Assembly (NCBI RefSeq): GCF_000003815.2
Contig: NC_049984.1
Coordinates: forward strand, 11,672,275-11,736,274
Length of the DNA stretch: 64,000 bases
Source: Branchiostoma floridae
Lineage: Eukaryota; Chordata; Leptocardii; Amphioxiformes; Branchiostomatidae
Direction: 5' to 3'
The position numbers and the translations under genes are program-made. The notes under the pieces were generated by a model. It was not told the DNA's origin. It searched no databases and saw only the letters and a list, made by a program, of their open reading frames with translations. The stretch's first letter is position 1, and every line of letters begins with the position of its first letter. Positions 41,758 through 51,356 of the stretch are shown in pieces.

Positions 41758-44700
41758 TCATGTCTGCACGATATAATTATATGTCACCCAGTACATGATA
41801 TTAAACAATAAAAACGCGAGAGGGAATCCCCATCTACAGATGTGGTCGATGGTGTCTGCTATATTGCTTCCACCTGCGTTAGTTAGAACTGTGTCGTCCA
41901 CACTGTTCTCCGGGTGTGAGTTCGAGTTCGTAGGAAACGCGTTGGCGTTGGAGTTCCTCTTCGCCGCCGGTGGTCTGATGTAGCGTTTTAAGGCTTTGGC
42001 TTCCTGCAATGCAAAAGAAATAATCCTGATTGATTTTAACTTCTTAATGTATATATGTCGGCGTCTATACTCCACATGGTACATTTGAAACCTGAAGTAG
42101 TTTCTCTTTTGAAAGTGGCACGGTGAGACGCAGACAGTAGGGTGCGATGTGGTAATTAGGATCCCATTTTGAAAGATTGCCAAGATTCCCTTTTTGAAGG
42201 ATTGCCAACCACTCCAACAAAGATTCAGTGCGTGTTTCTGGTTATTTGATGTCATATTTGATGTTTTCAAAGGACTCCAACTTGGCCAAGTTGGCTAATG
42301 GTTAATGGCCACACCGTTGCCTTAGGGCGGTGACCTCGCTCGAATCGTGCTGTGACCGAAATTTTAACAGATCACTCAACAAACTTTATATGAATGAATG
42401 AATGAAGACCTTTATTCTACGTTTTTGCTTTCTAACAAGCTAAGTACAGGTCAGGATGAATAGAATACATCTCCTAGAGATTCTAAGTACAATCTATGTA
42501 GGGTGTGATAGATAAAATGTTTTTTTTTACGCTTTATGTGCTTTGCTGTATTTTCAGTCATACTTTTACGATTTGTATGGAACCAAGGGTTACACAAATC
42601 TAATTGAAGTCACAGTGATCACCGCCAGGTGGAATCGAGTTTCATCTTAGTAGCTGTGTAAGAGAAAATGGCAAATGTAGTAAAACTAAATGAAACCTAA
42701 GCCAAATACCTGTCTCGCAAACGGTTATGAATAAAATCTATGAACTCTCTAGTCGGCGCAATTTAATGCGAAGAGGTGCCAAATATGTATTTGTCACGGA
42801 AGTGCGATTCTATCAATTTTTCCAAGGACGCACTACAAGAAGTAATTAAAGGCAAAGTAGATCTAATCTAGTAGTGTTGATTCCCAGGGAGTCTGGGTCC
42901 CTGTCCAATATATGTGGTCCAATTCCCCTGACGCTTGTCCTCATTTTTCTAAATTGGAACATGGCAGGTAATATAGTAGACAGCGAGGTGATTCTTTTCA
43001 TCCGTGACACGGAGCCTTCGTTGCTAGATAATTGGATGAAAACCTAATCGTGACAAGGTCTTGTTACCCTCTCTCCACCTCATAACCAACGTTTATGTGA
43101 AGTGGTTTATGCCCGACAACGCCCTCTATGCAGCTTCATGCCAACTTCGTATAAATCCTCAAGTGCAGCTCTTTACGTGATAAAGCAGGGCTTTTGACCT
43201 GGATCAAAATGATCGAAAAGGTGTTACATAATTGAAAAGGTATTGATGAATTCGGGTGAAAATTGGGCACGGCAAGCTTATATAACCATACACAGTTACT
43301 TGCAATAGAAATAGCCATTTGTCTTCCTATAGATTTTGCTGTTTCTCTATACACACGAGATATTTGCCCCTTGGATACTAGGGACGTTTGAAGGCGTCTG
43401 GGTGGTCTAAAAGATGACATTGATCCTTCGCCCTTCGTTTATGATCAGAGCCGTTGAAGAAAAGGTGCATATATATAAAAGAAATACTTTTAGTGCCTAT
43501 TTCCAAAGGGACATAATCTGCACCCTGCGCTGAAAGCTTTAAAAATCACACAGGTGTTTGGCAGAGTTAAGAAAGCAATTGAGATGTATCAAGGGCATCA
43601 GTTCGCAGGGAATGGACAGACATTTGCATCTAAATCCGTTCGAGTTTACAAGGTATTTAATGTAGGGCTGTGGTTTGCCGGCAACAGCTTTCTGCGTAAT
43701 TGGTGAAAATAAGTAGCGCGGTTCACAGTATCTGACAGCAGATGACATTAGGCTTGTAGCCCTGAAAGAAAGACTTGATATATCTACAGGAACGTTGCTA
43801 CTGCTGTATGACATTACTGGTTTCGTGTATAATTCGGAGGCGGGTGTCACTGTATCTCAACTGGTAGCAGCCTTACAGTTGATATCCTGGTTCCAATAAC
43901 TAGTAACTGGTTAACAGCGGTTCAATCCTGGGCATACCGATAGGGCATTTCAGTTGGGCTACACCCATATTTTTTGGTCTTGCAGAACCATACCAACAGT
44001 TACCAGAACCACAGGCCTAACCCTTAAACTACCAGAGTTTCAGCCCAGTAAAATGCTCTCAGTGCCAGGGTTTGACCGCTGACCTCGAAACCATCGACAA
44101 GGCCGACTCTCCGAACCTCCGAGTTTTACGCGCGCGCAAAGCTGTTTCTTCGGGGGATGCCCTATCCCGGTTACATCAGGGTGTGACACACAGGGCATAT
44201 ATTCGTATGCCGGATATATCAGGGCTTGGCCGTTTAAGGGACAACAGACTAGTAGTTGCAACGTTTAGAGTGGCAGAGTTGCAATGGAACAAGGGGATCA
44301 TTAAATAAGTTATGAGTTTCACCAAGTGTGGAGCCAAATTTATGCCACGCCTGATTTTTCTCATGAGGTAAGACGTAGGAGATAGGACTAGAGTTTAGGC
44401 CAGGGTAAGGGATATGGCTATAGGGTTAGGATTTGGGTTAGGATTAAGGCTAGGGTTAAGGTTAGGGTTAGCGTTAGCGTTTGGGTTAGGGTTAGTTTTT
44501 ACAGCGCGACCCGTCCTCTAAGATTATCACGCCCTACGAGGATTACGCACTTTTCTCCCCGAAGGTATACAGGAAAACCCCAAGCAGTGTTGGAACAAAT
44601 ATTTAGCAGGGACAGAAGTTTAGCTTAACACCGGAAACAAAGGACATAGCTCTAAACTATAAAACCTTCTATTCATGTAGACCTAACCTCCAACTTGTGG

Positions 44701-47700
44701 TCATTTCTCTCCAGGTGACGCCCCTATAAGAATTAGTAGTCAAGCGGAGAAAAACACGAGTAAGGAAAGAGTTTACAACAAGTACTGTGGCTACAGTTGT
44801 ATGGTTCTAGTGTACCATTCCACTCCAAGCAGATGTATCGAGGGAATAGACATTATCAAAAGGGCTAAGAGGTACCCAGATGGCCCCCGAAGACACTGTT
44901 TATTCCGTTGTAAACTGCTCCCTATACTAGATCTGCTTGGAGATTAGTTCCCCTTGCCATGAACTCTGCAAAGACGGACGTGTTTGGTAAGAAGGCCCAT
45001 TGCAGTAGAACCGAAAAGACGTGATTAGCTAATGACCTCTGGTTGCAGCTCAATCGTCCATGTTTTACCCCTTTCTTTAACCTAGCGTCAGATATAGATT
45101 TTCGAAAGGGCGTCGCCAGCAAGGAAATGGCCGCAGTGATCTGAGTTCTGGTATAGTATACAGTTAAGCCGGTGAAATAGGAGGTGCCAAAAACAGAATG
45201 AACATGACATTCAAATAGTGTATAGAAGTATGACCCTTGGCAAATACGCAATGGAAAAGTTATTGCGTCCAGGGAGCAGTATCGACCCCAGGATTCCAAT
45301 AATGTGAACTTGAGATATCATCATGACCCTAAGGAGGAATTGAGAAATGATTTGGAAACTAGCACTTATAGATGTGCGTGACTTACTTTCAGTCTTCTTG
45401 ATATGTAGTTGACGGCAGCGTATTCTATCAGAGCCAAGAAGACGAAGAGTTGGCAAACTAATAACCATACGTCTACGGCACGCACATACGACACCTCAGG
45501 CATTGGAATCGGCCTGCCGCTCTGAAAGGAAGATAAAAGTTCAGTCAGGAACTCTTTTGTTTTTGCACGGATGTCTCCTTGTGAAGATAGAACTGCTCTA
45601 TCAGATCTAGTGTTGGTAATGTCAGGTCAAAACTGTCTTGCCTGAAGGTCTGAAGGGGCATTTATAAGTTGAAAGGGGTGTGTTTTGCACGGGACAACGG
45701 GTAGAGATTAATTTTAGTCGGAAACTTACTAGATTTAAATAACTGTTTCATGCATTGAAGAATAAAATGTTGACTTCTTTTCCTATTTTCCCGTCCTACA
45801 TTTTCCTGTCATTTTAACATTTAGATTCAATCGCTTTTGTCCTAAGATATGTTTGCTTGGATACGCACAATGCAAGATCGAGGTACTTGGAAGATCGTAC
45901 TGGATCATATATTTGAGAGAAAAATAAGATACACAAGTTATCAAATATTTGGCCCTCATATTCTAATAAGCTGAAAACACCTCGAAGTTGAGATGGTTTG
46001 TCCACCTGTGTGATCATGGTGAGAACTGTGGTGACCCCAAGCGCAGTTCTGGCCGGTGAAGACTCGATGTTGATCCAGAAGGAAACCCATGACATGGCCA
46101 CGATACTGATGGACGGGATGTAGATCTGCAGCATGTGGTACGACAGACGCCGCCTCAAGCTAAACCTTAGCTCCGCCGTGGTGAACACCAGGTCACCTTC
46201 TGACACTGTATGGAAGGGCAGAAGTCATGCGGTGAAATTCATTTTTCCTGCTCAGCATCATTTTGCTATCATGACTCCTACCAATGATCTAACTATACTT
46301 TTAGATACAACTGTAGTTGTACTGTAGTGCTGGAATTAAGGTTTTATTACCTGTGTTACACAATGAGCGTGTTCACGGGTCCAACAGCGCAACCGCAGGT
46401 CAAAGGTAAAGGCCCGGAGCAAAACATGTCCGGGCGTCGTCATACAAATATACTAACGGAGGCCATGTACATATATATCCGGACATGTATAAAGCGAGAC
46501 AAGAACTCTACAAGTGCAGGTGTATTCGCCTTTGACTTGCGCATGCGCAGTTGGATCCTTGAACATGCTTATTCCATTGGGTAGATGTTTACTCCAGGCT
46601 AAGCAAAGTGACCTACGAGGTACTTGCAACGATCACATGATCTAAAAGAAATAAAATCATACCCATGAGGAGACCGAAGACACAATCTTCAGGTTTTCTG
46701 ACAGCTAACTCGTCTGTGCCGTTCTTGCACTCCCCGCCGAAATAGTTACAAGTCCGACACTGTTCCGTGGTAATCTTTTCTACACTGGTACACTGTGCTC
46801 GAAGACAATTTTCTGACTCCCGATAATCACAGGTGACCCCCTGGTAAACACAGATCAGTTCTGGAAGGTAAGAGACAATAACGATTTGGAACCGCATTAT
46901 CAAGAGCTCGAGCGACACCAAGTTACATTGTGGAATAGAACTAGTCAGTATTGCCCTGATGGAGACAGACGGTCACAGAAACGTCGGGTGTTGTCTATAT
47001 ATCATGGCTGTGAATAAGGAATCTTGTTATCCTGTAATTTTCCTACCTGAAATTACTCATGGAAGGAACAATGATTGTCTTTTGTTCGGTAGAAAACTTA
47101 TGACTAGGATCCTGCTGATGACCTATACTGGTCATCTACAGAGTACAATGCCAACAATGGCTGCTTTATGACACAGACGCAGATTACAGTAAGGTACTTC
47201 GCGTTGTCATCAACGCGTGTATGTCATCCGTGGCAGGGCAATTGCTCAGACAAAGATTACATCGGTTACCCATCTTGTTTCGTAATGCAGTTTCCCTAGC
47301 GCAATCTCTGTTAGGTCAAGATGGTGTGTTGAGCATTGTATCTGATGGCATATCACCATTCGTCACAAAAGTAAAGCACGAAAATTGCGGCTCTAAAGAT
47401 AGAAGCAGGCAAATCTGTTGTTCAAGCTGCCTACAGTTTTGGATGGCACTGTATTTGAGTCATACTTACCCGGATAAAGTAATGAATTGACGTAGGCGAA
47501 TGATTCTACCGTTTCCAGAGAGAGCTGAGAGTGTAACCCGGATGTACGCGTTACTATGGGCGTGTCACCTGGAAACCAGAAGGTCTCCCAGCCCCAAACA
47601 ATCTTCACTCCTCCACCTAATTTAAAAAAAACACACACAGAACAAATGGTAAAGTATCATAGAAACGAACCTTGCTTTGATGGCCTATAAAAACCTGCCT

Positions 47701-50700
47701 ACGAATGGCAACTTAATAGTTGATATTTTATCGATTTATCACTATCTAAATGGACTGGAATCATGGAAACGAACTAAACTTGTCATTGATGGACTATGAA
47801 AGCCAGCCTAAGGATTGCGATTTTGGAGTTGATATCTAATCGATTTATTTTTACCTGATTAACGAGGCAACGTCTCGCATCATAACCAATGAAAGCTGGA
47901 TCTATATGTTATTAAAAAGTGGTTTATCCTTATTTTCCATAGTGGATACTAGTGACCACCGACAGGAGTATATTGCCTAGTACTATAACAAACAGCTACC
48001 TAATAATGAATACATGGAAACAGGTCTCAAGGAATTTGTTACACCTTAGACAAAACCCAAAAGGCCATGATTACGTCAAGCATGTTGACTCTTGTTGGAG
48101 TCTTGGGCTAGCATTAGGGCAAAGTTGACCACGTCTGATTGCATTCCTCTGGAGGTCGAGAAAAATATCATGACCTGACCGTCGTTTCTGTCTACGCGTA
48201 ACTGCATCTTGTGTCAAGGTCCAAGGCTACAATGTGCCAAAAAAACTTCCATCCATCCAGATGGAATTTCATCTCCGGGAACAATAATGCTGATGCCATT
48301 CTATTAAGTTTGGTAGCAATAACTATACTTAATCAGAGCTTTAATTTCGATCATTCAAGGACTCTTCGGTAGTAGTTGCATTTCTAATGGTAACTGTAAG
48401 CTCATTGTTATCATCACTCATAAAGCGTAGTAAGCCTCAGTGATGGTTGTTTTGATCGAGGGAAAAAATGATCACCAACTTGACCTTGCGTGGTCATATC
48501 CATTGAGTCTACACGAGTTTCTAATGAAAAGGCCCAATGCAGTTTAAAATAGCCACGTGCACTACGGGATCAAACGTACACCACTTACCCCATGCCCCAA
48601 GAGCTATTCATCACTTTAAAGTCACGACCATAGAACTTCAGGAGACACCAAACCCGGGCGAAAATGGTCTTTTATTCAATAGTGTTTTTATCTATACTCA
48701 ATCTGTTGAAACCTTTGTGCAAAAGTTCTGAAAAAAATCCACCTCAGTGTCATACTCGATCACTGAAGCAGCAACTGCACGAGTCATTAATGCTATTCCA
48801 CAAGCCCAGATCTTGGGTAATCACAATTAGCCTTCTAATTTGTAAGTCGTATTCCAGATCCGAAACCGACCCCCTAAGGTAAACTCTGCCAGGAAAAGCA
48901 GGTTATTGGAGGACAAAATTAGAGATTCAAGAAATGCTTAAAAACAGCTTTAAGGGACTCCTGGGGGCGTCCTGCAGAAACCGATAAGAGAAAACTCCAC
49001 AGAATTAGAGTTCCCAGTCCAATTAGCACCGCTCCATGCGGCACGTGACCTACATGTGAAACTGTGTTTCTGGCGGCAACAAGCCTCATTAGCTCCTCCA
49101 AACCCACCAGACTAGACATAAAACGGCTATCCAAGAAGGCATCCTTGGCCATACTCTAGAACAAAGAATGAGTCTCAAATAAGAATAAGCTAATTATTCA
49201 AAGCTGATATTCCACACACTACTTCCATTAGTAATCAAACTGTCTAATAAGCAATCAAGACGTGACCAAAGTTAGAATGAAAGTTTGTAAATATATCTAG
49301 ACTAAAAGAGAATATTAATCACAGATCTCGGACAGATTTGACCGCGGGATATGCAAAGTGGAATACGTTTATCAAATTCAAAGAGGTCGCGGGATATGTG
49401 AAGTGGAGTCCGTTTATCCAAGATGGCGGCCACTTTTTCTCTACTCGTTATATTTTCAGTAGGTTGGGAGAGTTCATTCCCTCGACACTCGTGCCTAAAC
49501 GTTTCAACACACCTCCTCATAAAATCCCTTCTTTTGTGTTACCTGAGACAGGTCACCTTCATGGGCCGCATACGTTGCCAAAGTAATTTCGCAACTAATC
49601 TTGTTTTAAGCATTAGTCTTTTTCCAATCAATGCGAGCTAGTCCTAGTATTGGTGTCCTCTAAAGCCTGCTATGATGAAAGAGCATAGGAAGTGCACTCG
49701 AATTTTGAAGCGTGTTTCTTTCCTCTAGCATGTGATGTGACTAAACAATGTACTTACGATTTTGAATGAGCAGGCTGCACTTTTGATGGTCCAATGGATA
49801 GGCGTGAAGCTGCATCAAGCACGTTGCTTTTATCGTGAACCTGTGACATAAATGATTATTACGGGATGTAAAGAACCTGAGCCAATAACTGATGATGCCT
49901 GGCACTTATTTCAAGGCGTAATACGATTTACTGCATAGACATGCTGAGTTCCTCGGTATTACTGTCTCGCAAAAACCGCATTACCTAGCTGAACTTCTGA
50001 CGAACCTGTACTAACACAATAAAAGTTGCGTCTGGACGTCTGATTCTCCACATGCGCACACTTAGTCAAGGGGCTTGGAAAGAGCGGTTGCGTGGCTCTG
50101 GAACATCATGGCATTGATTTTGTGTTAGAGCCAGATTGCTGGAGTAGCCTCGGCTATCGAACAAAGGTTCAACAGATGTCATTTTAGTGGAAGAGCTTTG
50201 ATCCATAACACGCGAGATTGGATAGTTTGGACAAGCTCTCTCCTTACATCGTGTACATTCTAGGGGTTCTACTGGCTACGATAACATGTCAATACCTTTT
50301 TCGTAGAAGCCATACATGATGAGACAGAGGCCGAATCGGCCATCTTTTTACATTTAGTGTATAAAGCAACATAATCATCATCTAAGAAGGATGTGTATCT
50401 ACTCTATAACAATAAGGACATTCAACTAGAATAAGCTGCAGTTATCTGTACCATTGCATCATAAGCACATTTCCTTCACGTGACACACTGAGAGCAGAGG
50501 TGTAAGGTGTGCTCTCTTTCGCTACGACATCTATGGAGGGCTTCCAGATCTCCATCCCCTCCGGTATCGCCACGTGTTCGGACGTGATGTTAGCTAACCG
50601 CCCATCTCGCCACTGGCACCCCAGTATCAGGCTCAAATCAAAGTCCTGGACTCACAAGAAAGAACTGATGTTAGGTATTGCAACAGACGATGTAGCCTGA

Positions 50701-51356
50701 GTACTTTAGTATCCCATGTAACACAACTTAATTGCTGCATTTAGCCCACATGGGCAGGAACATGCAAATAAAGATCACCATTAAGTACTGTGTTATAAGT
50801 AGCTTTGAGTACCAGCAACTCGATTGTCACTGGCTTTTAACAGCAATTGACCGTTGGACGGGGGCCAAAGCTAATATGACTAGATTGAAAGCTACAGAAA
50901 ATGTTCATATGAGGCCAAGGAATATTCGCTAGCTTCATATCATTAATGTTTGCCAAATAGCTATGAAACAAGAGATACATGAAGAAGCCCAACGGATGTT
51001 AAGAGTTATAGTATGCAATACTTTATTTCTGGTTAAGGAGCTTATAAATTATTATTAAACACATGTATTACTAATGTAATCACATTGATCTGGTATAATC
51101 GACTCTAAGGAAAGATATTGCAATCTTTCATGCATCAAATATGGGAAAGTATATATGTTTATGCATGTCCATATGTATGTATGTATGTATGTATGTATGC
51201 ATGTGTGCATGCGTTTGTACGTTTATGGAATCACTTGGTCTCTTATTAAGCAAAATCTTTAACTTAAGAATTCAAATAACAGACTTACCATAGTTTTCTC
51301 CGAAAAGGCCCCTAAACTGTCGATGTAAATACTGCACACGACTTCAACTGGAGGAC
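41758..51356 (-). CDS. Anion-type Cys-loop ligand-gated channel subunit (glycine/GABA-A-like), N-terminus missing
   Basis: Exons, 5' to 3' on the minus strand: 51356-51289, 50645-50452, 49840-49758, 47616-47470, 46860-46663 (cassette), 46205-46006, 45521-45387, 42003-41758. Phases agree throughout and give 423 residues. In order: beta1 strand ([15 protein letters not shown]), loop A (IWKPSIDVV), sequon NITS, Cys-loop with C-x13-C ([15 protein letters not shown]), beta8-9, loop C, TM1, TM2 with the anion-channel motif PAR, Leu9' and ending MITQ, TM3 and TM4, ending QT*. It should form a pentameric chloride channel in the plasma membrane. The 68-bp and 83-bp exons equal the corresponding exons of vertebrate glycine receptor genes. 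Odd points: loop B lacks the usual aromatic GYT-like segment, loop C lacks the second GlyR disulfide, and the TM3-TM4 loop is short. Signal peptide and first exons were not found above 51356. Confidence 0.93.
42293..42365 (+). repeat. tRNA-like sequence, possible SINE head
   Basis: TGGCTAATGGTTAATGGCC resembles the A box/D-arm of Ser- or Leu-type tRNAs, and GCTCGAATCGTG about 40 bases later is a weakened B box. The spacing fits a class II tRNA with an extra arm. Acceptor pairing is not preserved, so this is a tRNA-derived repeat or pseudogene rather than a working tRNA. It lies in the last intron-to-exon region of the receptor gene, upstream of its final exon. Confidence 0.35.
42395..42540 (-). 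mobile_element. 3' tail of a CR1/L2-type LINE
   Basis: On the minus strand the text ends AATAAAGGTCTTCATTCATT with (ATTC)n repeats. A poly(A)-less 3' end made of short tandem repeats is typical of CR1/L2-group LINEs. The roughly 110 bp upstream (TACTTAGCTTGTTAGAAAGC on the minus strand) would be the 3' UTR. There is no coding part here. Confidence 0.45.
42541..43842. other. Receptor intron sequence, no feature recognised
   Basis: This is the middle of the 3.4-kb intron between the TM3 and TM4 exons. Phase 0 on both sides means an extra TM3-TM4 loop exon could be present without breaking the frame, but none with splice sites was found. Confidence 0.4.
43843..43966 (+). mobile_element. tRNA-derived SINE, copy 1
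   Basis: GTGTCACTGTATCTCAACTG, GTAGCAGCC, CTTACAGTTGATATCCTGGTT and the B-box-like GCGGTTCAATCCTGG are followed by TAGGGCATTTCAGTTGGG and CTACACCC. The same order of words occurs at 57069-57170. A-box and B-box spacing fits a tRNA-derived Pol III promoter. This copy lacks the longer body seen in the second copy. Confidence 0.65.
44025..44110 (+). repeat. Dispersed repeat, copy 2 (partner at 32943-33040)
   Basis: It shares AGAGTTTCAGCCCA(A/G)TAAAA, CTCTCAG(C/T)GCCAGGG and the CTGACCTC(C)GAAA end with the copy at 32943. Here it lies directly after the SINE at 43843-43966, inside the receptor intron, so the two may form one composite insertion. Confidence 0.65.
44421..44496 (+). repeat. Degenerate interstitial telomere-like repeat
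   Basis: About 75 bp of GGGTTA-type hexamers with substitutions: TAGGGTTAGGATTTGGGTTA, then GGATTAAGGC, TAGGGTTAAGG, TTAGGGTTAGCGTTAGCG, TTTGGGTTAGGGTTAG. At least five exact TTAGGG or GGGTTA units are present. It lies in the receptor intron between the TM3 and TM4 exons. The vertebrate-type telomere repeat is TTAGGG. It may equally be a simple-sequence array that arose locally. Confidence 0.7.
46361..46579. mobile_element. Foldback MITE in a receptor intron
   Basis: The left arm CAATGAGCGTGTTCACGGGT, CCAACAGCGCAACCGCAGGT, CAAAGG pairs with the right arm, which on the minus strand reads CAATGGAATAAGCATGTTCA, AGGATCCAACTGCGCATGCG, CAAGTCAAAGG. The arms are about 55-60 bp and flank a centre with GTACATATATATCCGGACAT. 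It sits between the Cys-rich cassette exon (46663) and the TM1 exon (46205). Transcribed as part of the intron, it would form a long hairpin. No protein is encoded and no clear target duplication was fixed. Confidence 0.7.
46663..46860 (-). CDS. Cysteine-rich cassette exon inserted in receptor loop C (phase 1-1, 66 codons)
   Basis: The acceptor is strong (GTCTCTTACCTTCCAG|AA) and the donor is ATGG|GTATGA. Entry phase 1 joins the G of the preceding exon (47470) to make Glu; exit phase 1 joins TG of the TM1 exon (46205) to make Val. Length is 198 bp, so inclusion or skipping both keep the frame. The product has eight cysteines spaced C-x6-C-x7-C-x4-C-x10-C-x2-C-x6-C-x14-C and a sequon (NGT), with no membrane segment, so it looks like a small disulfide-bonded extracellular module. 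In glycine receptor genes the intron at this place splits loop C, the flap that closes over the agonist. I know of no family member with such an insert and do not recognise the module. The alternative is an unrelated or nested exon that happens to fit. Confidence 0.75.
47655..47850 (+). repeat. Imperfect tandem duplication of about 100 bp in a receptor intron
   Basis: ATCATAGAAACGAACCTTGC, GATGGCCTATAAAAACC, GTTGATATTTTATCGATTTA (47657-47738) recurs as ATCATGGAAACGAACTAAAC, GATGGACTATGAAAGCC, GTTGATATCTAATCGATTTA (47761-47850). It lies upstream of the 147-bp beta8-9 exon on the minus strand. Confidence 0.75.
49343..49430 (+). repeat. Two tandem 45-bp units in a receptor intron
   Basis: CGCGGGATATGCAAAGTGGA, then TACGTTTATC at 49343, is repeated 45 bp later as CGCGGGATATGTGAAGTGGA, then TCCGTTTATC at 49388. 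There is no coding significance. Confidence 0.75.
51172..51212 (+). repeat. (ATGT)n microsatellite
   Basis: About eight to nine ATGT units with flanking ATGC variants. It lies in the receptor intron about 80 bp from the 51289 splice donor. Confidence 0.9.

What the first reader, a model, noticed from the sequence alone, without database searches (positions are those of the whole stretch)
46663..46860. Eight-cysteine cassette exon placed in the agonist-binding loop C of an anion-type Cys-loop receptor
Seen directly: a 66-codon exon with a strong acceptor and good donor, phase 1 at both ends, lies between the beta8-9 exon (47470-47616) and the TM1 exon (46006-46205). Joining with or without it keeps the frame. 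Its product has eight cysteines (x6, x7, x4, x10, x2, x6, x14 spacing) and one sequon. Known: in glycine receptor genes the intron at this place interrupts loop C, and symmetric phase-1 exons are the usual unit of extracellular module shuffling. Inferred: the gene makes receptors with a disulfide-rich lid on the orthosteric site, perhaps by alternative splicing, which would change ligand access or add a partner-binding surface. I know of no described pentameric receptor with such an insert.
Basis: partly seen in the sequence, partly recalled or inferred. Interest (0 to 1): 0.82.

Follow-up and report, generated by a model that had tools for sequence, protein, structure and literature searches.

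The report
Cysteine-rich module in receptors' loop C
A whole branch of neurotransmitter-receptor-like ion channels in this animal (probably a lancelet) carries a small cysteine-rich domain, matching no catalogued one, in the flap that normally closes over the transmitter, which suggests that these channels sense something other than the usual transmitters.

Summary
The exon is real: it lies where reported, is phase 1 at both ends and encodes eight cysteines. It is not a one-gene curiosity. In the window's own genome every confident match to it sits in a Cys-loop receptor gene, upstream of the TM1 exon. Of 43 TM1 loci inspected (not a random sample), 37 have a clear module, 2 are uncertain, 3 lack it with the whole loop C intron read, and in 1 it was not found in the 1.8 kb read. 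On a TM1 tree the module-type rows form one clade (99/97), so one gain is the simplest history. Two module-less receptors have a phase-1 intron at the same loop C spot (YSTG|). Third codon positions have changed far more than the protein. No Pfam family or PDB chain matches consistently. In 13 of 17 genes whose loop-D exon was found, none has the arginine that glycine receptors have there. Best reading: a fixed disulfide-rich lid on the orthosteric site of an expanded orphan receptor clade, in some respects like octopus chemotactile receptors. Alternative splicing is unproven; family-wide retention makes it less likely as the main function, though this gene's donor is weak. Structure, ligand and transcripts are untested.

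The parts
46663..46860 (-). Loop C module exon: 66 aa, 8 cysteines, phase 1 at both ends
   Evidence: homologues
47470..47616 (-). beta8-beta9 exon, ends LLYPG| in loop C, phase 1
46006..46205 (-). TM1-TM2 exon, starts |[15 protein letters not shown], anion-type PAR motif before M2
45387..45521 (-). TM3 exon
41758..42003 (-). TM4 exon with stop codon
49758..49840 (-). Cys-loop exon (C-x13-C)
50452..50645 (-). Loops D, A and E exon; donor |GTACAG set by eye
51289..51356 (-). beta1 exon ([22 protein letters not shown]), ends set by eye

Best explanation
The exon encodes a compact, probably disulfide-bonded domain that is a fixed part of a single, much expanded clade of mostly anion-type pentameric receptors in this genome. 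It most simply arose once, when a phase-1 exon entered the pre-existing phase-1 intron at the tip of loop C, and was then inherited through gene duplication. On the tip of loop C it would sit over the orthosteric pocket at each subunit interface. Together with the loss of amino-acid-coordinating residues, it most likely makes a remodelled ligand-recognition site: a lid that contributes its own contacts and changes which ligand closes loop C. Shown here: the exon, its position and phase, its conservation in the clade, one clade on a TM1 tree, purifying selection, and absence of the loop-D arginine. Inferred: disulfide formation, constitutive inclusion, the lid geometry and the non-classical ligand.
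For: All 17 matches to the window's module (itself included) lie upstream of a TM1 exon in receptor genes; a phase-1 acceptor and donor were found for each (which looked for phase-1 sites only). Twenty more clear cases came from 26 further TM1 loci. TM1 tree: module-type rows are one side of a branch, 99/97. Module-less L043 and L044 have the phase-1 intron at YSTG| in loop C. Module dN about 0.19, dS not computable (as when saturated). 33 of 35 aligned modules keep all eight cysteines; the two exceptions, neighbours on the tree, lack the same two. GlyR alignment: R to G and F to I in loop D, SFGY to NRGG in loop B. Arg at the loop-D position in 0 of 13 genes, of 17, where the exon was found.
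Against: No transcript, structure or ligand data. The window gene's donor is the weakest of 17, so skipping in this gene is possible. The single-sequence fold failed (pLDDT 53.5). The tree has 59 columns and four module-less rows, one of which (L067) is module-less only as far as it was read; two module-labelled rows are uncertain; long branches meet in it. In one search the module tree and the TM tree place L029/L030 differently, both with starred support. One loop E serine is retained. Disulfide pairing rests on one shared loss of two cysteines.
Confidence: 0.7

Rival explanations
1. The module is a partner-binding or assembly domain: it projects from loop C and binds a secreted or membrane partner, or controls which subunits assemble, without shaping ligand binding.
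For: It is an exposed insert with at least one sequon in 26 of 35 modules and varies strongly outside its cysteines (mean column identity 32%), like recognition domains.
Against: The same genes lack classical loop B and loop D ligand residues, which points at the pocket itself.
Confidence: 0.25
2. Alternative-splicing switch: including or skipping the symmetric exon toggles between a lidded receptor and a conventional one.
For: Symmetric phase-1 exon (phase-1 sites found for all 17 genes scored); weakest donor of the 17 in the window gene.
Against: Retention: no clade member inspected whose stretch could be read lacks a module (L066 is degenerate, L065 masked). The skipped product would still lack the loop-D arginine, so it would not become a classical glycine receptor.
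Confidence: 0.15
3. Built-in three-finger (Ly6/Lynx-like) or toxin-like modulator fused in cis to loop C.
For: Extracellular, many cysteines, at the site where three-finger proteins and conotoxins bind receptors (recalled).
Against: No UPAR_LY6 hit among 21 families listed for 35 members; a CD59 model hit 1 of 35 at E 5.9, Toxin_12 2 of 35 at best E 0.063, Toxin_7 1 of 35 at E 2.6. The cysteine spacing differs from the recalled Ly6 pattern.
Confidence: 0.06
4. Chance open frame or an exon of an unrelated gene nested in the intron.
For: None beyond the lack of database matches.
Against: Homologues upstream of TM1 at 36 other receptor loci, with phase-1 sites in the 16 of them that were scored.
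Confidence: 0.01

Closest known systems
Vertebrate glycine receptors (GlyR alpha)
   Same: Best PDB matches over the N-terminal LBD and TM1-TM3 (8dn2 and others, best E 2.5e-54); Cys-loop, PAR motif; two module-less GlyR/GABA-like genes of this genome have the same loop C phase-1 intron.
   Different: No such insert in GlyR loop C (recalled); the loop D Arg and Phe and the loop B SFGY stretch are not kept in the window gene.
Octopus/squid chemotactile receptors
   Same: Lineage-specific expansion of pentameric receptors with altered ligand binding (PMC11526382, passages: up to 26 CRs in Octopus bimaculoides; PMC10338036, passages). Likeness of function is an inference.
   Different: CRs come from nicotinic receptors; these genes are GlyR-like with an anion-type motif, and carry an added domain. 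No ligand is known here.
Alvinella Alpo4
   Same: Receptor lacking known signature ligand motifs, native agonist unknown (PMC10338036, passages).
   Different: No added loop C domain mentioned in the passages seen; nicotinic-like.
Ly6/uPAR three-finger proteins
   Same: Small cysteine-rich extracellular domains acting at Cys-loop receptors (recalled).
   Different: No Pfam UPAR_LY6 match; cysteine spacing differs from the recalled pattern.

Membership tests
Cys-loop pentameric receptor | Neur_chan_LBD and Neur_chan_memb domains | tested here: met
   Pfam 45.3 and 123.1 bits, over the cut-offs 26 and 28.1, for the joined protein without the module
Cys-loop pentameric receptor | Cys-loop with 13 residues between cysteines | tested here: met
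   [15 protein letters not shown], exon 49840-49758
Cys-loop pentameric receptor | Four transmembrane segments | tested here: met
   TM1-TM4 exons read from sequence; part of the M3-M4 loop unresolved
Cys-loop pentameric receptor | Pentameric, ligand-gated channel | not testable with these tools
   Needs expression
Anion-selective subgroup | PAR motif before M2 (role recalled) | tested here: met
   [15 protein letters not shown]; distant clade members deviate, e.g. L059-L064
Glycine/GABA-gated receptor | Loop D arginine and aromatic, loop B SFGYT-type motif (roles recalled) | tested here: not met
   Aligned to GlyR: R to G, F to I, SFGY to NRGG; Arg in 0 of 13 genes, of 17, whose exon was found
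Ly6/uPAR three-finger domain | Sequence match to Pfam UPAR_LY6 | tested here: not met
   No UPAR_LY6 match in 35 members; CD59 model 1 of 35 at E 5.9
Octopus chemotactile receptor | Descent from nicotinic receptors | tested here: not met
   The 60 best PDB matches shown (of 188) are glycine and GABA-A receptors or chimeras holding their parts
Alternatively spliced cassette exon | Transcripts with and without the exon | not testable with these tools
   No RNA data held

The most novel reading that the evidence does not exclude
A chordate lineage independently turned inhibitory glycine-type receptors into a roughly 40-gene chemoreceptor (or peptide-receptor) family by grafting a new disulfide-rich domain, with no sequence match in Pfam or the PDB, onto the agonist-capping loop C. 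The domain itself would be the variable ligand-binding element and the cysteine core its scaffold.
Probability: 0.3. Interest if true: 0.92.

Novelty: new variant of a known kind. Interest (0 to 1): 0.78.

Why it matters
Loop C capping is a central and debated step in activation of pentameric receptors. A natural clade with a separate domain on that loop is an experiment on how much loop C can change while keeping gating, and a clean case of exon insertion into an ancestral phase-1 intron with large later expansion. If the receptors prove to be chemoreceptors, it would be a chordate parallel to the cephalopod ones.

Tried and rejected
Pfam and PDB searches with the single module, a 16-member set and a 35-member set gave no consistent family. 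PDB: nothing at E up to 10. Pfam, 35 members: Zn_clus in 6 (best E 0.045), MSG in 5 (best 0.058), Toxin_12 in 2, all others in 1 each, the best value being zf-rbx1 8.6e-5 in 1 of 35. I take these as chance cysteine matching because no family is shared by most members. The AlphaFold run on the window module alone was of low confidence, so no fold search was made. A module-versus-TM tree comparison agrees in part but places L029/L030 differently with starred support in both, so I do not lean on it. In one search the L010 module was cut at 19 codons by my script; that row is not used. Considered and rejected: chance ORF, nested foreign exon, single-gene oddity, three-finger domain. Weak matches away from receptor TM1 hits (C11:10783834, C5:19164079, C1:30697329, C1:29949185; E 0.05-0.28) were not followed up.

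Full report
Observation. The minus-strand exon 46860-46663 exists as described. It is 198 bases, 66 codons, phase 1 at both ends, with eight cysteines and one sequon. The acceptor is good (16 of 20 pyrimidines); the donor tgg|gtatga is the weakest of the 17 homologous donors scored (4.3 against 4.8-10.8, weights recalled), so 'good donor' is generous. The frame is kept with or without the exon.

The gene. Around it lies a nearly complete Cys-loop receptor gene: beta1 exon 51356-51289, loops D/A/E exon 50645-50452, Cys-loop exon 49840-49758, beta8-9 exon 47616-47470, the module, TM1-2 exon 46205-46006, TM3 exon 45521-45387 and TM4 exon 42003-41758 (some ends set by eye). A joined protein without the module matches Pfam Neur_chan_LBD (45.3 bits) and Neur_chan_memb (123.1 bits). 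With the module included, the best PDB relatives are glycine receptors. The first exons (signal peptide) and part of the M3-M4 loop were not resolved.

The module is a family. A protein search of that genome with the 66 residues gave 17 matches including itself; four of the 16 others have E 0.5-2.75 and are accepted because of their place, not their score. All 17 lie on the same strand as, and upstream of, a TM1 exon (for C6:1401428 the full TM1 exon lies about 5.5 kb away at C6:1395731). An upstream beta8-9 exon was found in 16 of 17 (one, L033, at E 0.036 only); for L032 only the Cys-loop exon and earlier exons were found. Phase-1 acceptor and donor candidates bound each module; that script reported phase-1 sites only, and the L032 acceptor is poor. 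All 16 distinct proteins have eight cysteines.

Extent. A TM1-exon search gave 78 matches. I inspected 43 loci covering 45 of them, chosen by me and not at random: the 17 above and 26 more (L042-L067). Profile searches of the open frames found a clear module in 19 of the 26 (L045-L054, L056-L064). Eight of these (L045-L052) were found with the first profile, built without them, at E 8e-6 to 0.029; the other eleven with a profile that included those eight, at E 1e-5 or better. A twentieth, for L055, appeared when more upstream sequence was read (L068). L065 is partly masked (E 0.61) and L066 degenerate (E 0.052): both uncertain. L042, L043 and L044 have none in the fully read loop C intron. In L067, a GlyR-like gene, none was found but only 1.8 kb was read, so absence is not established. 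Totals of 43: 37 clear, 2 uncertain, 3 without, 1 not found as far as read. The same profile on 691 reverse-strand frames of those 26 loci gave nothing better than E 0.18. For the 20 later cases phase was read by eye at most (one search shows eight of them) and the beta8-9 exon was mostly not located.

Origin. L043 and L044, module-less, carry a phase-1 intron at the corresponding loop C position (YSTG|LYTC and YSTG|SYSR, by eye). The module therefore sits in what looks like an older loop C intron. On a TM1 tree of 41 rows and 59 columns (37 labelled module, of which L065 and L066 are uncertain; L027, L040 and L042 left out; GLRA1, L043, L044 and L067 as module-less) the module rows form one side of a branch with support 99/97, and one change of state suffices. 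The module-less sample is small and the program warns that long branches meet.

Selection. Between the window module and that of the paralog at C6:1.54M, 37 of 53 residues are identical, codon-position differences are 14, 6 and 37, dN is 0.19 and dS could not be computed, as when saturated; the beta8-9 exon behaves alike (9, 7, 28; dN 0.17). Across 35 aligned modules, six cysteine columns are invariant and two are kept in 33 of 35; mean column identity is 32%. The two exceptions (L045, L050), neighbours on the tree, lack both of those cysteines, which suggests that these two pair with each other; this may be one event.

Known domains. No match in Pfam or PDB for the single module; none in PDB for 16- and 35-member profiles. 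Pfam on 35 members gave only weak or scattered hits: Zn_clus in 6 (best E 0.045), MSG in 5 (best 0.058), the best single value zf-rbx1 at 8.6e-5 in 1. The AlphaFold run on the lone sequence reached pLDDT 53.5 and says nothing.

The pocket. Aligned to glycine receptor alpha-1, the window receptor has Ile and Gly where GlyR has the loop D Phe and Arg, and NRGG where GlyR has SFGY in loop B; the loop E serine is kept (residue roles recalled). The loop D exon was found in 13 of the 17 genes (window included), and none of the 13 has Arg at that place; nine of the 13 have a cysteine next to it. This argues against glycine or GABA as ligand.

Mechanism. Loop C closes over the agonist in this family (PMC12749857, start of abstract in a listing). 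A separate, probably disulfide-bonded domain on its tip must move with it or block it. I infer a lid that takes part in ligand recognition in an orphan, expanded receptor clade. Octopus and squid chemotactile receptors are a functional parallel (PMC11526382 and PMC10338036, passages), not kin. Rivals are partner binding and splice switching; RNA data would decide the latter.

Literature. Nine searches of the held library (several listed only the top 10-25 of hundreds) and passages of PMC4795631, PMC10338036 and PMC11526382 showed no loop C domain of this kind and no description of this expansion. The library lacks most subscription papers, and no eukaryotic protein database was available, so presence in other animals is open.

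Noticed in passing
L037 2742-2810, 2877-2945, 3013-3222: Three tandem copies of the start of the loop D exon in one receptor gene; possibly alternative or decayed exons.
   Followed up: no
G000:C9:22212690, 22213077, 22213451 (L066): Two partial copies of the TM1 exon lie upstream of a full one, with further fragments in the frames and a degenerate module upstream.
   Followed up: partly
L040 3679-3747 (-): A partial second copy of the module's 3' half lies between the TM3 and TM4 exon matches.
   Followed up: partly
window 50645-50452 and loci L029-L036: A cysteine two residues before the conserved loop D tryptophan in 9 of 13 genes (window included), absent in L037, L039, L040 and L041.
   Followed up: partly
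L026 and L027 (C6:1.54M and 1.40M): Two nearly identical receptor genes in opposite orientation about 136 kb apart (module DNA 99.4% identical over 53 codons); a broken piece of TM1 exon lies next to one of them.
   Followed up: no
window about 44395-44500: Interstitial telomere-like TAACCC repeats between the TM3 and TM4 exons.
   Followed up: no
L046-L064 TM1-TM2: Many members of the distant half of the clade have strongly altered M2 starts (for example TARVQLCVTAILALIT, TGRVTLGAMAILSM), so ion selectivity there is uncertain.
   Followed up: no
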